A stretch of 64,000 nt of DNA from Thermostichus vulcanus str. 'Rupite'. GTDB taxonomy: Bacteria > Cyanobacteriota > Cyanobacteriia > Thermostichales > Thermostichaceae. The first letter of the stretch is position 1. The number at the start of each line of letters is the position of its first letter. A program made the translations under genes and the position numbers. The stretch lies in contig NZ_JAFIRA010000015.1 of NCBI RefSeq assembly GCF_022848905.1, forward strand, positions 1-64,000, given 5' to 3'. Below, one piece after another: positions 51,381 through 57,104 of the stretch. The notes below the pieces were generated by a model. The model made no database searches. It had not been told where the DNA came from and saw nothing but the letters and a program-made list of their open reading frames with translations.

Positions 51381-51791
51381 CTAGTCCTGTTCTGATCCCT
51401 GCGGGATCTCAACTCGGCTCTGCAACCACTGCTGCACCAGGGGGAGAAGGGTTTCGCTCAGTTGGTTCCACTGGCTGGGCTTTTGTGTAGTGGTCAGCAG
51501 CTCTACTCGATCTCCGCGAATGACCAAAAAGCCGACCGGCTCAATGCGCACCCCGCCCCCCGCCCCTCCAAATAGGCTGGCCGGATCCCCCCCATTGCCC
51601 CGAAAGCCGGGAGCCGTCTTGCCAAAGTTGCCGCCACCCCCGCCCAAGCCAAAGTGCAAAGACATGTAGGGCACGATAATCGTTTCACCAATGGTGATCG
51701 GCTGGCCGAAGGTTTGCCCTGTTTCCGCCAGAACCCGTAGCTTGCTCAGTACCGCTTCCAGCACCGTTTCGACATTAAACTCGGATCCCAT
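51381..51791 (-). CDS. GerW/YtfJ family protein
   Basis: The 136-residue protein has FNVETVLEAVLSKLRVLAETGQTFG, GETIIVPYMSLHFGLGGGGG, a Gly-rich loop and VRIEPVGFLVIRGDRVELL, the pattern of the GerW (YtfJ) family first named from spore germination in Bacillus. Cyanobacteria do not sporulate, so the role here must be different and is unknown. No signal peptide is visible. Its end lies only two bases after the GGATCC cluster at 51314-51379. Confidence 0.82.
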   Translation of the reverse strand: MGSEFNVETVLEAVLSKLRVLAETGQTFGQPITIGETIIVPYMSLHFGLGGGGGNFGKTAPGFRGNGGDPASLFGGAGGGVRIEPVGFLVIRGDRVELLTTTQKPSQWNQLSETLLPLVQQWLQSRVEIPQGSEQD

Positions 51792-51873
51792 CTCGGCTCA
51801 CTCACCCGCATGACGATCCCAGCCTACCTTGCCCAACGGCGGCCCGTTGGCAAAGCAGACCCGAGAAAACAGC

Positions 51874-52137
51874 TTAATCTTCGTCGGGAGAGCCGGAATA
51901 GAGGTCTTCCAAGCGATTGCGGGCCTCATCCAAATTGGCAGAGCGGATCACCAACAGGGGCTCTTCCGTGAGGTTGCCATCTTCGTCCACCAGTTCCGGG
52001 TGAGGGATCCGCTTGCGAGAACGGCGGGGAGATGCCTTGCGCTCTTCCATCCCCAGGGTAATGAGGTTGGAAACCAGGTTGCGCAGGGCCAGAAAGGCAA
52101 TGGCCGCAAAAGCGACGAGATAGAGGATCTGGAGCAT
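51874..52137 (-). CDS. DUF2973 family small membrane protein
   Basis: The 87-residue protein from the ATG at 52137 has one N-terminal membrane segment (LQILYLVAFAAIAFLALRNLV). A basic stretch, then HPELVDEDGNLTEEPLLVIRS and ARNRLEDLYSGSP follow, matching the cyanobacterial DUF2973 pattern. Its start shares one base with the stop of the DUF2605 gene (TGATG), so translation is coupled. Function is unknown. This pair occurs together in other cyanobacteria as far as I recall. Confidence 0.78.
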   Translation of the reverse strand: MLQILYLVAFAAIAFLALRNLVSNLITLGMEERKASPRRSRKRIPHPELVDEDGNLTEEPLLVIRSANLDEARNRLEDLYSGSPDED

Positions 52138-52448
52138 CAGGAGTCGGAGGAGGGATGAATCTGGCGAAATCGACGACCAAGCTCGGCACATTCCATCAGC
52201 AAGCGATGCCATTTTGCCATCAGCCCAGGGTCGATGCCAACTTCATTATCCGATAACTGATAGAGAGTTTCCGCCACCTGTAACTCTGATTGAGCAGCCA
52301 GCACTCGCTCCAAAACGGACTGCTGCTCGTCCAAGCTAAGCCATTCCAGCCGTTCTTCTTGTAGAAACCGACGTGAGCGCTCAAACCAGTAGCGGTAGTC
52401 CTCCAGCAACGGCCCCAGGATCTCTTGCAACAGCTCCGCTTTGCTCAT
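52137..52448 (-). CDS. DUF2605 family protein
   Basis: The 103-residue acidic helical protein from the ATG at 52448 (the frame extends upstream to 52607 without conserved sequence) contains LLQEILGPLLEDYRYWFERSRRFLQEE and SQSELQVAETLYQ-like spacing. Its C-terminal half is KWHRLLMECAELGRRF, matching the cyanobacterial DUF2605 pattern. No signal peptide or membrane segment. It overlaps the DUF2973 gene by one base. Function is unknown; the coupled expression suggests a soluble partner of the small membrane protein. Confidence 0.78.
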   Translation of the reverse strand: MSKAELLQEILGPLLEDYRYWFERSRRFLQEERLEWLSLDEQQSVLERVLAAQSELQVAETLYQLSDNEVGIDPGLMAKWHRLLMECAELGRRFRQIHPSSDS

Positions 52449-52525
52449 GGCTTGGGATCCCTCAATAGCTGGTCTAGATAAGAAAATCTTAGCAGAACTT
52501 AACTTTTGTTGCCCAGGGATCCCCT

Positions 52526-54001
52526 TCAGCGGGATTCCAGCCAGGCTTCCGCCTCCAGCATCAGGGTTTCCAACTGTGGCAATAGATCCCTGGCCCCCTC
52601 CTGCCAATAGCCCCGTTGATGGGCCTCCAGCAGCCGCTCGCTCATATCCCGCAACGCCCAGGGGTTGTGGGCCCGTAAGAAAGCCTGCACCTGGGGATCC
52701 AAGAGGTAGGCTTGGGCTAAACCCGTGTACATAAAGTCCGGCACAGTATGGGTGGTGGCATCGTAGGCAAATAGATAGTCCAACGTGGCCGCCATTTCAA
52801 AGGCTCCCTTGTAGCCGTGGCGCATCACCCCGGCTATCCACTTGGGGTTGACCACACGGGAGCGGTAAACCCGGTCGATTTCTTCTGCTAGGGCACGAAT
52901 TTTCGGGTTTTGGGGACGGGCATGATCCCCGAAATAGATCTGGGGATCCCGGCCCTGAAGGGTGCGTACCGCCGCCACCATCCCCCCCTGAAACTGATAA
53001 TAATCGTCAGAATCCAGCAGGTCGTGTTCGCGGTTGTCTTGGTTGTGCAGCACAATTTGCAACTGGGCCAATTGCCGTCGTAGCGCTTCTGGAGCTGCTT
53101 GTCCCTCGGCTTCGGCTCGGTAAGCATAGCTGCTCCAGTTCAAGTAGGCCCGCGCCAGATCCGCCTCGGTTTCCCAGTTTTGCGCCTCGATCAACCCCTG
53201 CAACCCAGCCCCATAGGCCCCTGGCTTGGAGCCAAAGATCCGCAGTCGCGCCCATTCCTCAGCTTGTTGGGGTGGGATCCCTTGCTGTTGCCAGTGTTGG
53301 GTGTCAGCCTTCACTTGAGCCCGTAAAGGGTTGTCGGTTTCCGGCTCATCCAGATCGGCTACAGCTTGCACAGCCCGGTCAAACAGGGCAATCAAATTGG
53401 GAAAGGCATCCCGAAAGAAACCGGAAATGCGCAGGGTAACATCCACCCGTGGCCGCCCCAACACCGAGACCGGCAGGATCTCGAAGTTCACCACCCGCCC
53501 CCCATCCCAACAGGGTTTTACCCCGAGCAGCGCCAAGGCTTCCGCCCAATCCTCACCGCCGGTACGCAGGGTGGCTGTCCCCCACACCGAGAGGCCCAAG
53601 CTGCGGGGATAGTCCCCCTGTTCCTGCACATAGCGCTCCACCACCCGTTCTGCCGCCAGGGATCCCACTTGCCAGGCGGTGGGGGTGGGAATGGCGCGGA
53701 TATCCACCGAGTAGAAGTTGCGCCCGGTAGGTAAAACCTCCATCCGACCCCGTGTGGGTGCGCCGGAGGCACCGCTGGGCACATAGCCCCCATTCAGCCC
53801 GTGCAAGAGGTTGTGCAGCTCCTGGGGGGTTTGCTGCAGACGGGGCAGTAAATCCGTTTCAATCCAGTGCAACACCTGCTGGGCCGCTGGCCCCGGTGGT
53901 GGATCATAGGGGATCCCTTGCACCCGTTGGGCAATCCACAGGCGGGCTTGCGCCTCTAGGGCAGCGACTCCATCTCCGATCCAGCGAAAGTTATCAGACA
54001 T
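52526..54001 (-). CDS. C-terminal half of cobaltochelatase CobN (CobN/BchH family)
   Basis: The 491-residue protein matches only the C-terminal part of CobN: LPTGRNFYSVDIRAIPTPTAWQVG, QEQGDYPRSLGLSVWGTATLRTGGEDWAEALALLGVKP, LGRPRVDVTLRISGFFRDAFPNLIALFDRAV, and FGSKPGAYGAGLQGL in order. Full CobN is about 1200-1400 residues. No CobN-like sequence precedes the start in any frame: 54002-54136 is noncoding and a pentapeptide gene follows. Either the chelatase is split into two genes or this is the end of a broken gene. The frame itself is intact and the conserved blocks have no stops. CbiG-CobJ, also for cobalamin, lies 1.2 kb away. Confidence 0.85.
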   Translation of the reverse strand: MSDNFRWIGDGVAALEAQARLWIAQRVQGIPYDPPPGPAAQQVLHWIETDLLPRLQQTPQELHNLLHGLNGGYVPSGASGAPTRGRMEVLPTGRNFYSVDIRAIPTPTAWQVGSLAAERVVERYVQEQGDYPRSLGLSVWGTATLRTGGEDWAEALALLGVKPCWDGGRVVNFEILPVSVLGRPRVDVTLRISGFFRDAFPNLIALFDRAVQAVADLDEPETDNPLRAQVKADTQHWQQQGIPPQQAEEWARLRIFGSKPGAYGAGLQGLIEAQNWETEADLARAYLNWSSYAYRAEAEGQAAPEALRRQLAQLQIVLHNQDNREHDLLDSDDYYQFQGGMVAAVRTLQGRDPQIYFGDHARPQNPKIRALAEEIDRVYRSRVVNPKWIAGVMRHGYKGAFEMAATLDYLFAYDATTHTVPDFMYTGLAQAYLLDPQVQAFLRAHNPWALRDMSERLLEAHQRGYWQEGARDLLPQLETLMLEAEAWLESR

Positions 54002-54136: not shown

Positions 54137-54748
54137 CTAGTCTTTGACCCACAACATCCCGGCCCGCAGCGGATCAAAAGAAGCATCGAAGATTGTGGAG
54201 TGATCGAAGCTGGCCCGTGCCAACTTAGCTCCGGTAATTTTCGCCCCTGAAAAATCTGCCCCGCGCAGATTGGCTTTGCTCAGGTCAGTACCGCGTAGAT
54301 CCGCTCCTCCAAATTTGGCCCCTACCAGGTTGGCCCCGATCAGGTCTGCCCCAATCAAATCTGCACCCACTAAAGTGACTCCAGCCAGATTGGCACCATT
54401 CAGCTTGCTCATGCGCAGCTTGGCCCCGCCCAACTTGGCCCCCGACAACAGCGCCTCGTTCAGCATGGCCCCACTCAGATCTGCCCCACTCAAGTCCGCA
54501 TCCGTCAAATCCGCCTGTCGCAGATTGGCCCCGATCAGCGTCGCCCCGATCAGCTCCGCCCGTGTTAAATTCGCTTCGTTGAGATTGGCCCCGATCAGCT
54601 CTGCTCCCACCAGATCGGCCCGTACCCATTGGATCCCTTGCAAATTGGCTCCAATTAACTCCGCCAAGCGCAGCGTGACCCCGCTGAAGTCTCGATTGCC
54701 CTGGGCATAGGATTCGAGCAGTTCGGAAGCTGAGTGGATATAAACCAT
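54137..54748 (-). CDS. Pentapeptide repeat protein
   Basis: The 203-residue protein is built from about 30 A(D/N)LXX repeats (GANLNEANLTRAELIGATLIG, SGADLSGAMLNEALLSG) from residue 20 to 190, which fold as a right-handed beta helix. No signal peptide, so cytoplasmic. A few repeats deviate (GIQWVRADLVG, FDHSTIFDASFD). Such proteins can mimic DNA or act as scaffolds; no partner is suggested by context. The N-terminal 16 residues form a short helix. Confidence 0.92.
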   Translation of the reverse strand: MVYIHSASELLESYAQGNRDFSGVTLRLAELIGANLQGIQWVRADLVGAELIGANLNEANLTRAELIGATLIGANLRQADLTDADLSGADLSGAMLNEALLSGAKLGGAKLRMSKLNGANLAGVTLVGADLIGADLIGANLVGAKFGGADLRGTDLSKANLRGADFSGAKITGAKLARASFDHSTIFDASFDPLRAGMLWVKD

Positions 54749-55166: not shown

Positions 55167-57104
55167 TCAGGGATCCCCCAACCGGTAGCCGCGTGGAGTA
55201 ACCAGCCTTTGACCATATTGAAAGGTATTGGAGTTGCCAATCAGCACCAGCGTTAACATGTCCACTTGCTCGGGATCCAACTCCGCCAGCGTGGTGAGAT
55301 GAAGCGCTTGTCCGGGGCGGTAAAGGTTACGGGCCAGGGCCACTGGGGTATGAGCTGAACGGGCCTGCAAAAAAATGTCAACGGCTCTCAGCAAGGGATC
55401 CAGCCGTTGTTTGGAGCGCGGATTGTAGAGAGCAACCACAAAATCGGCGGCGGCGGCTGCCTGGAGGCGCTTTTCAATCACCGGCCAAGGGGTGAGCAAA
55501 TCGGATAGGGAAATGGCGCAAAAGTCGTGCATCAAAGGGGATCCCAACTGGGCTGCCGCTGCCTGGAGGGCTGAGATGCCGGGTAATACCTCCAGGGAAG
55601 GTTGGATCCCATCCCATCCCCTTTGGGTCAAACACTGTAACACCAGGCCCGCCATACCATAAATGCCCGCATCCCCAGAAGAGATCACGGCGACCTTGAG
55701 CCCTTGCTCTGCCCAGGCGATGGCTCGTTCCGCCCGCTGAATCTCCCGGGTAATCGGGGAGGGATCCCGAATTTGGCCAGGATGCAACAGCGGCTCGATC
55801 AAGTCCAGATAGAGTTGATACCCGATCACCGCATCCGCTTGGGTGAGGGCCATACGAGCCGCAAGGGTGAGCTGGGCCAGATCACCAGGGCCAGTCCCGA
55901 TCAGCCACAGGTGCCCAGAGCGTGGGGAATATTCTCGGCTAGCCTGGGCAATCGCCAGGGTACAGGCTCCCTCCGTCGGGGAAGTATAAACCCGTTTGGG
56001 GCAGATTAGGGTCGCCGCAGGATTCGCAGTGTCGTAAACCGACTGCTGGCGCAGCTTGCTTTGAGACTCTGCCACCCGTAGAGCCGCCGCTTCTGCAACA
56101 GAGGGGGTGCCCACCGCTTGACGAACGGTTTCGGAAGGATGCGGTACTGGGATCCCAGCTAGCTCTTCAGCCGAAAAGAAGCGTAGAGGCCAATCGTAAG
56201 CCTGAGCCAGTTCCAGAAGCCCTGCTTCGTCTTGCTTGAGCGTCAAGGTGGCCAAACCCGCAATCGCTTCCCAGGCCAGCCCCTGTTCCTGGAGTAGCTG
56301 CCGCAGGGATCCCTCTAGCCAAGCTCGGGTGGTGCCCCGCTCACAGCCAATCCCGACCCAAAGCACCCGCGGATGCCAGCTCACGCTGGGGATCCCTAGG
56401 GGAGGAAGAGTCCGTTCGCCAATGTGAATTTGGGCCACTGCCTCTGCCGCTGGGGTGAACAGCCGTTGATGCTCAGCCCAAGCCCGCCGCCAGAGCTCGG
56501 TGCCACAGGTTTGCTGCACCTGGACAGGTTCTCCCCGGTTCAGGGCTGCCGCCACTTCAGTCCAATTCCCGCTCCCCCGCCGCCACCCATAGGGATCCCC
56601 GAGCAAATCCAAAGGTGGGATCCCCAATCCCTCCGAACCCGAGGTCAGCACCGGTTCTACCCCCAGAGCGACCGCCACCCGCCGGGCCAAGGCATCGGCA
56701 CCGCCCACATGCCCGCCACACAAGCTGATCACCCAGCGACCCGCTTCATCCACCACCACCACCGCCGGATCGGTATGTTTGTTCTGCAACAAAGGGGCAA
56801 TCAATCGTACCACTGAGCCCGTAGCCAAGATAAATAGACACCCTTGCACCTGGGGCCAAGTACGGGCAACCGCTTCCGACAGGGATCCTGGCCCGGAAGG
56901 ATGGGTGGGATCGGCGTAGGCTTGCCAGGGTTGGGGTAGGGGATCCCCGTTGGGATTGGCTTTGCTCCAGTAGAGGATGGAAGCTGGCAAGCTGGAATCG
57001 AACTGTCTGTCGGCAATCGGAACCGGTTGGCCAGTCAGAAGGGATCCCAGTTGAGTAGCAATCTGGCGGCCCTGCGAAGTTGGGGCAAAGAGGGCAAGCT
57101 TCAT
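55167..57104 (-). CDS. cobJ: CbiG-CobJ fusion: cobalt-precorrin-5A hydrolase/precorrin-3B C17-methyltransferase
   Basis: The 645-residue fusion has CbiG domains at about 1-390 (LFILATGSVVRLIAPLL, VISLCGGHVGGADALARRVA, LWVGIGCERGTT). CobJ follows from about 396 (HLWLIGTGPGDLAQLTLAAR, VAVISSGDAGIYGMAGLVL, VVALYNPRSKQR), an SAM-dependent tetrapyrrole methylase. CobJ adds the C17 methyl and contracts the corrin ring. CbiG opens the lactone to lose C20. Such a fusion is common in cyanobacteria. It lies downstream of alaS on the same strand (109-base gap). No cobalamin riboswitch was recognised before it. Confidence 0.93.
   Translation of the reverse strand: MKLALFAPTSQGRQIATQLGSLLTGQPVPIADRQFDSSLPASILYWSKANPNGDPLPQPWQAYADPTHPSGPGSLSEAVARTWPQVQGCLFILATGSVVRLIAPLLQNKHTDPAVVVVDEAGRWVISLCGGHVGGADALARRVAVALGVEPVLTSGSEGLGIPPLDLLGDPYGWRRGSGNWTEVAAALNRGEPVQVQQTCGTELWRRAWAEHQRLFTPAAEAVAQIHIGERTLPPLGIPSVSWHPRVLWVGIGCERGTTRAWLEGSLRQLLQEQGLAWEAIAGLATLTLKQDEAGLLELAQAYDWPLRFFSAEELAGIPVPHPSETVRQAVGTPSVAEAAALRVAESQSKLRQQSVYDTANPAATLICPKRVYTSPTEGACTLAIAQASREYSPRSGHLWLIGTGPGDLAQLTLAARMALTQADAVIGYQLYLDLIEPLLHPGQIRDPSPITREIQRAERAIAWAEQGLKVAVISSGDAGIYGMAGLVLQCLTQRGWDGIQPSLEVLPGISALQAAAAQLGSPLMHDFCAISLSDLLTPWPVIEKRLQAAAAADFVVALYNPRSKQRLDPLLRAVDIFLQARSAHTPVALARNLYRPGQALHLTTLAELDPEQVDMLTLVLIGNSNTFQYGQRLVTPRGYRLGDP

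What the first reader, a model, noticed from the sequence alone, without database searches (positions are those of the whole stretch)
52526..54001. Isolated C-terminal half of CobN
Only about 490 of roughly 1250 residues are present, with an intact frame and preserved motifs, and no N-terminal part upstream. Either the cobaltochelatase is encoded in two pieces, or a paralogue has been reduced to a new protein. CbiG-CobJ nearby shows the cobalamin pathway is present.
Basis: partly seen in the sequence, partly recalled or inferred. Interest (0 to 1): 0.5.

Follow-up and report, generated by a model that had tools for sequence, protein, structure and literature searches.

The report
Cobalt-inserting enzyme split into two genes
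In two groups of early-branching cyanobacteria, the large protein that puts cobalt into vitamin B12-type molecules appears to be made from two separate genes far apart on the chromosome, so the enzyme's active site would have to be assembled from two proteins instead of one.

Summary
Window 52526-54001 (-) is an intact 491-aa frame equal to the C-terminal 40% of CobN. The missing part exists: the same genome has a 738-aa N-terminal CobN gene on another contig, and no full-length CobN was found. Against NCBI's CobN model the halves cover 1-744 and 756-1226 of 1226.

All 8 family genomes held (window's included) have both halves as separate genes, about 200 and 830 kb apart in two one-contig genomes. 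A second family (8 genomes) shows the same split in the same linker; one 83%-complete genome lacks only the N half. The one other genome of the order has a full-length gene. Both halves are under purifying selection (dN/dS 0.06-0.12 among congeners). Concatenated trees reject a single fission; freely searched trees of either half alone do not.

By alignment to structures in PMC12583661, the cut falls in helical domain IV. The two sides of the proposed metal site lie on different chains: His541 (N half), Asp332/Asp333 (C half). Best reading: an obligate two-chain CobN. Biochemistry is untested.

The parts
52526..54001 (-). C-terminal half of CobN (491 aa), here called CobN-C
53795..54001 (-). 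residues 1-69 of CobN-C: three predicted helices, read as the end of helical domain IV
   Evidence: predicted helices 2-27, 38-56, 59-69; the domain name is inferred from PMC12583661 and the alignments
53708..53794 (-). residues 70-98: highly conserved loop (GGYVPSG..GAPTRGR..VLPTGRN), low confidence when CobN-C is modelled alone
52559..53704 (-). residues 100-481: read as domains V and VI, the part also solved as truncated chains of CobN (9fpc) and ChlH (5ewu, 6ys9)
   Evidence: Z 50.5 to 9fpc over 380 residues, rmsd 1.9
53003..53008 (-). Asp332-Asp333, aligned with Asp1208-His1209 of the HmuS metal site
   Evidence: alignment; HmuS residues from PMC12583661; invariant in the 40 rows
54137..54748 (-). 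context: pentapeptide-repeat gene directly upstream, where an N-terminal half would otherwise lie
55167..57104 (-). context: CbiG-CobJ fusion (cobalamin pathway)

Best explanation
The gene is the C-terminal half of a cobaltochelatase large subunit whose gene was cut in two. Its partner, the N-terminal half, is a separate gene elsewhere (G000:C7 99490-101706, 738 aa). Shown: the two genes together cover the CobN family model almost without overlap or gap; both are intact, conserved and under purifying selection; no full-length CobN was found beside them. Inferred: the two chains form an obligate heterodimer. The N chain brings the head, neck and most of domain III, with the conserved HxGxHG histidine (His541). 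The C chain brings the end of helical domain IV, the conserved VLPTGRN loop and domains V and VI with the facing Asp332/Asp333. The corrin pocket would therefore form at the chain interface. The complex would be powered by ChlI/ChlD, because CobT is absent, and would insert cobalt in the pseudocobalamin/cobalamin route. The cut was tolerated because it lies in a stretch that already varies greatly in length. It probably happened twice in cyanobacteria.
For: Own genome: three PF02514 matches only: a full-length one, the N half (profile 1-648) and the C half (676-1086). The full-length one is ChlH-type: 28% identical to the N half, against 52-60% for most full-length cyanobacterial CobN rows and 33-45% for three divergent ones (L159-L161). 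TIGR02257: N half 1-744 (886.7 bits), C half 756-1226 (735 bits). Family: 8 of 8 genomes have both halves in separate loci; in one-contig genomes the halves lie about 200 kb (G003) and 830 kb (G004) apart. Second family f17: 8 of 8 have the C half and 7 of 8 the N half; the eighth, G106, is 83% complete. Full-length PF02514 genes in f17 are ChlH (7 of 8 placed in the ChlH tree; G106's was not fetched), and an extra one in three genomes is ChlH-like (35-38% to ChlH, 41-42% to the G008 paralogue), not CobN. dN/dS N 0.08-0.12, C 0.06-0.11, ChlH 0.03-0.05 over 15 pairs each. Cut site: 14 of 15 N halves end after a ..DPL.. element (G077 has DDCL); C halves start at or just after ..GDxVxxLE... Between DPL and the next conserved W of intact CobN, 70 of 73 measured rows span 50-148 residues; 3 rows dropped as mis-anchored. 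Structure: C-half model Z 51.3 to M. tuberculosis CobN 7c6o over 386 residues, rmsd 1.8; N-half model Z 29.2 to the same chain over 570 residues, but rmsd 12.7. Active-site alignment. CobT 0 of 12 genomes. Mg_chelatase-family frames of ChlI size (355-392 aa) in 7 of 7 genomes and of ChlD size (664-704 aa) in 6 of 7. B12-type MetH 11 of 11.
Against: No expression, interaction or activity data. CbiX-type proteins and CbiD are also present (7 of 7 and 11 of 11 genomes), so early cobalt insertion could make CobN dispensable. C-half and N-half dN/dS are about two to four times that of ChlH, so constraint is strong but not the strongest. Where distance can be read on one contig the genes lie far apart, so balanced supply is assumed. 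In G000 the ChlD-size frame is only 352 aa, not resolved. ChlI/ChlD were judged by family match and size only. No two-chain model could be run.
Confidence: 0.87

Rival explanations
1. The C half is a paralogue remnant with a new function of its own, and the N half is unrelated to it in function.
For: C-terminal parts of CobN and ChlH have been solved as truncated chains (9fpc, 5ewu, 6ys9), so the C chain may be stable by itself.
Against: N and C halves co-occur in 15 of 16 split genomes, with no full-length CobN found in any (in G106 the full-length match was judged by score only). The two are complementary with no shared region. The C half keeps residues of the shared metal site that face the N half and carries about 99 residues ahead of the 9fpc start.
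Confidence: 0.06
2. Pseudogene pieces: a decaying CobN made redundant by CbiX-type early insertion.
For: CbiX-type proteins and CbiD are present. Several profile matches (G000 N half; G077 N half; G023, G041, G067, G106 C halves) run over a stop codon.
Against: Those stops lie outside the frames, at the junction ends, where the profile match ran past the gene (checked for five of the six; G106's frame of 496 aa is open). The frames are open in three genera of f1 and two of f17, with dN/dS 0.05-0.17 in all measurable pairs.
Confidence: 0.03
3. On the history only (it does not compete with the two-chain reading): one fission in a common ancestor of both families, or spread of a split gene by transfer, followed by re-fusion in the full-length relative G008.
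For: The C-half tree groups f1, f17 and G008 (96%). Freely searched trees of N alone and C alone do not reject f1 plus f17 as one clade (p 0.18 and 0.43), and for N a tree with f1, f17 and G008 together beats the free search by 17 log units. Both families share a [YF][DN]P[PA]PG loop.
Against: The concatenation rejects f1 plus f17 without G008 (p-AU 6e-6; 0.005; on the same fixed trees C alone 0.003, N alone 0.17). {f1, G008} against the rest has 100/100 support. The loop motif also occurs in an intact CobN of family f40. Re-fusion needs extra events.
Confidence: 0.2
4. The halves are joined after translation by a split intein or by another trans-splicing route.
For: None found; the loci are far apart, as in known split-intein genes (recalled).
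Against: CobN homology covers residues 1-732 of 738 in the N half and 3-486 of 491 in the C half, leaving no room for intein parts; no intein family was among the matches.
Confidence: 0.01

Closest known systems
CobN, large subunit of the class I cobaltochelatase (TIGR02257; structures 7c6o, 9uk9, 9fpc)
   Same: Sequence, fold of the C-terminal domains and metal-site residues; the two genes together cover the whole family model but for about 11 positions
   Different: Described as one large monomeric protein (PMC7689651, passages read); here two genes at distant loci
ChlH/BchH, large subunit of Mg-chelatase (4zhj, 6ysg)
   Same: Homologous architecture; aligned over both halves
   Different: A separate ChlH gene is present in the same genome; the halves score far higher with the CobN model
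HmuS haem de-chelatase (9d26, 9p4s; PMC12583661)
   Same: Same six-domain fold and metal-site position. Its 120-residue methionine-rich insertion (residues 780-898, domain IV) falls in the same stretch between aligned parts as the cut here
   Different: One chain, membrane-linked, mainly Bacteroidota; removes iron from haem (PMC12583661, passages)

Membership tests
CobN (TIGR02257) | Score above the curated cut-off of 822 bits over a 1226-position model | tested here: inconclusive
   N half 886.7 bits (over), C half 735 bits (under); together they cover 1-744 and 756-1226
CobN (TIGR02257) | Closer to CobN than to ChlH/BchH | tested here: met
   735 against 364 bits for the C half, 887 against 345 for the N half; trees place both with cyanobacterial CobN, apart from ChlH
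CobN (TIGR02257) | Single polypeptide | tested here: not met
   Two genes on different contigs; about 200 and 830 kb apart in the two one-contig genomes of the family
CobN (TIGR02257) | Metal-site histidine of the HxGxHG motif and facing acidic pair | tested here: met
   His541 in the N half, Asp332/Asp333 in the C half; invariant in the 32- and 40-row alignments
CobN (TIGR02257) | AAA+ partner subunits | tested here: inconclusive
   CobT absent in 12 of 12 genomes; Mg_chelatase-family frames of ChlI size in 7 of 7 and of ChlD size in 6 of 7 genomes; use with CobN is inferred from the literature (PMC9227772, passages)
[quoted passage not shown]
   Needs an assay
Mg-chelatase H (TIGR02025) | Score above the cut-off of 829 bits | tested here: not met
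   364.5 and 345.3 bits
Split-intein gene pair | Intein segments at the junction ends | tested here: not met
   CobN homology fills the halves to within about 6 residues of the junction ends; no intein family among the matches
Pseudogene | Disrupted frame or relaxed selection | tested here: not met
   Open frame; dN/dS 0.06-0.11

The most novel reading that the evidence does not exclude
A class I chelatase large subunit became a two-chain enzyme twice, independently, by cutting the same loop in helical domain IV. The catalytic pocket is then assembled between chains made from unlinked genes, so pocket assembly could be a regulated step.
Probability: 0.6. Interest if true: 0.58.

Novelty: new variant of a known kind. 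Interest (0 to 1): 0.5.

Why it matters
CobN is described as one large 120-150 kDa monomer (PMC7689651), and ChlH and HmuS share its architecture. A natural split places the two walls of the proposed active site on separate proteins. That lets one test directly which half binds substrate, which binds the metal and which docks on the ATPase ring. It also affects annotation: the N half alone passes the curated CobN cut-off while the C half fails it, so automatic pipelines may call the N half a full CobN and miss the C half. Two fissions at one loop would mark domain IV as a permissive joint of the whole chelatase superfamily.

Tried and rejected
Pseudogene: rejected by open frames and dN/dS. Assembly artefact: rejected because both halves of G000 lie inside contigs (about 12 and 17 kb from the nearest end) and both occur in the one-contig genomes G003, G004, G041 and G067.

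Loop motif as a signature of the split: at first 19 of 19 split C-half rows (16 genomes; L026-L028 look like second copies of L021, L020 and L016) against 0 of 92 full-length rows; 18 further rows were cut or broken frames without it. Then a full-length CobN of family f40 was seen with the same motif (L201), so I dropped it. The 92 rows contain some duplicates of one gene from two sources (e.g. L106 and L124).

Further split families: five genomes (G038, G043, G053, G094, G144) had N and C pieces, but the pieces end at contig ends. In one search a profile of the C-half start, built from the 16 split genomes, was run over 388 genomes; that these 16 rank first is therefore by construction. What it adds is that the printed rows below them (a capped list) are mostly full-length frames. 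The short ones: L198 (the same sequence type as L084, Alkalinema MAG) and L197 have N and C parts side by side in shifted frames, likely assembly errors or at most in-place splits; L199 and L202-L204 are cut at contig ends. G050, G122 and G158 were not resolved. 75 of 388 genomes gave no match to this short query and say nothing. Phyla other than the window's were not sampled.

Rooting: with ChlH as outgroup the root moved into f1 (outgroup branch length 5); I use only the unrooted partitions there. AU tests on freely searched trees of N or C alone did not reject one clade; told as evidence against.

Model confidence: invariant residues are over-represented in low-confidence segments of the N model (75 of 162 against 110 of 576), weakly in the C model (19 of 42 against 142 of 449, p 0.09). 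This fits segments that need the other chain, but invariance alone can also lower confidence and no full-chain control was run, so I give it little weight.

Intein in Okeania CobN: the long frames (L032, L044, L055) show in-frame repeats (DFATDVRINSTI..) at the insertion start, not an intein, as read by eye; no family scan was run on them.

Full report
What is there. The frame at 52526-54001 (-) is intact, 491 aa from the ATG at 54001. It matches CobN better than ChlH: TIGR02257 735 bits over positions 756-1226 of 1226, BchH model 364.5 bits. Upstream lies a pentapeptide-repeat gene and then CbiG-CobJ; no N-terminal CobN piece is near.

The missing half. The window's genome (G000, 3.7 Mb in 120 contigs, 99.99% complete) has three PF02514 matches. 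One, on contig C8, is ChlH-type (28% identical to the N half). One is an N-terminal CobN on contig C7: 738 aa, own start and stop, between a peptidase C26 gene and an RRM protein gene. The third is the window frame. The N half matches TIGR02257 positions 1-744 with 886.7 bits, over the curated cut-off; the C half falls under it. In the 9uk9 CobN chain the halves align to 17-759 and 777-1250.

How widespread. All 8 family genomes held, the window's included, have an N half and a C half at separate places; their third match (in G001 in two pieces) is ChlH-type. G003 and G004 are single contigs with the halves about 200 and 830 kb apart. The only other genome of the order held, G008, has a full-length CobN in a frame of 1284 aa. 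I re-ran the 51 others outside the family. Family f17 showed the same split: 8 of 8 have the C half and 7 of 8 the N half. In a second class sample of 388 genomes, a profile of the C-half start found no further genome with a resolved split among the printed rows; the 16 split genomes rank first there, which is by construction since the profile was built from them (short frames followed up, three not resolved). Of 80 named loci, 67 have N and C parts in one frame, 3 are split members of the window's family, 8 start at or within 50 bases of a contig end, and 2 (L040, L084) show two frames in one place.

Selection. Among six congeners (15 pairs each) dN/dS is 0.08-0.12 for the N half, 0.06-0.11 for the C half and 0.03-0.05 for ChlH. 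Among six f17 genomes (G077 left out) it is 0.05-0.15 (N, 9 of 15 pairs measurable, the other 6 saturated) and 0.05-0.17 (C, 15 pairs) (Nei-Gojobori). Some dS values exceed 1 and are rough.

Where it is cut. 14 of 15 N halves end after a conserved ..DPL.. element (G077 has DDCL); C halves of f1 begin at ..GDxVxxLE.., those of f17 a few residues later. Six profile matches ran over a stop codon at these ends; for the five shown the stops lie outside the frames. In intact cyanobacterial CobN this stretch varies greatly in length: 50-148 residues between anchors in 70 of 73 measured rows, some with translated short repeats. PMC12583661 (passages read) describes the superfamily fold: head I, neck II, domain III with helical domain IV inserted, then V and VI; [quoted passage not shown] HmuS residues 698 and 930 flank the gap between our aligned halves, and its disordered insertion 780-898 in domain IV lies in that gap. 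So the cut falls inside domain IV, at a site where another family member tolerates 120 extra residues. This placement is by sequence alignment, not by a structure of these proteins.

How it likely works. HmuS His538 (motif HFGTHG, domain III) and His1209 (domain V) face each other across the cavity, and replacing His538 abolished turnover. His538 aligns with His541 of the N half and Asp1208-His1209 with Asp332-Asp333 of the C half. All are invariant in my alignments. The two walls of the pocket are therefore on two chains. The C chain is more than the piece solved as 9fpc: about 99 extra N-terminal residues (three predicted helices and the VLPTGRN loop) precede the 9fpc start. I infer an obligate, interleaved heterodimer. 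Partners: no CobT in 12 of 12 genomes tested. Mg_chelatase-family matches lie in frames of the size expected for ChlI (355-392 aa) in 7 of 7 genomes and for ChlD (664-704 aa) in 6 of 7; in G000 the latter frame is 352 aa, not resolved. CbiD and B12-dependent MetH are in 11 of 11. CbiX-type proteins are in 7 of 7, so an early route may coexist.

One or two fissions. f1 and f17 are each a clade (98/96 and 100/99). G008's full-length CobN groups with f1: SH-aLRT 97 (N) and 99 (C), {f1, G008} against the rest 100/100. Holding f1 and f17 together without G008 is rejected on the concatenation (p-AU 6e-6; 0.005). On the same fixed trees C alone gives 0.003 and N alone 0.17, but with trees searched for each half the values are 0.18 (N) and 0.43 (C), so neither half alone decides. 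The C tree groups f1, G008 and f17 (96), and an N tree doing the same beat the free N search. The ChlH tree, rooted on two Gloeobacter-type rows, branches as f1, f17 (86/81), rest, with G008's ChlH inside the rest. Two fissions is the better reading; one fission with re-fusion is not excluded.

Known or new. CobN is described as a single large monomer (PMC7689651, passages). PMC10156173 places Thermostichales CobN in its tree; the 6 passages shown do not mention a split. Searches of the open PMC library showed no report of a split CobN in their listings. Subscription papers and database annotation were not searched. I rate it a new variant of a known kind.

Noticed in passing
L032, L044, L055 (Okeania): CobN frames of 1742-1879 aa with in-frame repeated sequence (DFATDVRINSTI.. 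type) inserted inside the N-terminal part; not an intein by eye.
   Followed up: partly
L133, L057, L059, L083: The CobN linker holds translated short genomic repeats (e.g. PLAKGG..PLYKGDLGGSF); contig breaks in five other genomes fall in the same linker.
   Followed up: partly
L084 (Alkalinema sp. RU_4_3 MAG) and L198: CobN in two overlapping frames in place: low-coverage assembly error or an in-place split.
   Followed up: partly
G154:C1:773274-776507 and 780265-783498: Two PF02514 genes with nearly equal scores about 7 kb apart on one strand.
   Followed up: no
G016 (f10), whole genome: A class member, 95% complete, with no PF02514 match, hence no ChlH or CobN found.
   Followed up: no
L182, L183, L184, L108: A third, ChlH-like PF02514 paralogue in three f17 genomes and G008, 41-42% alike between L182 and L108.
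   Followed up: partly
L109, L110, L113: Three f17 N halves carry a proline-rich tail after the conserved end.
   Followed up: no
window 51381-52451: Spore_YtfJ-like, DUF2973 and DUF2605 genes directly downstream of the C half on the same strand.
   Followed up: no
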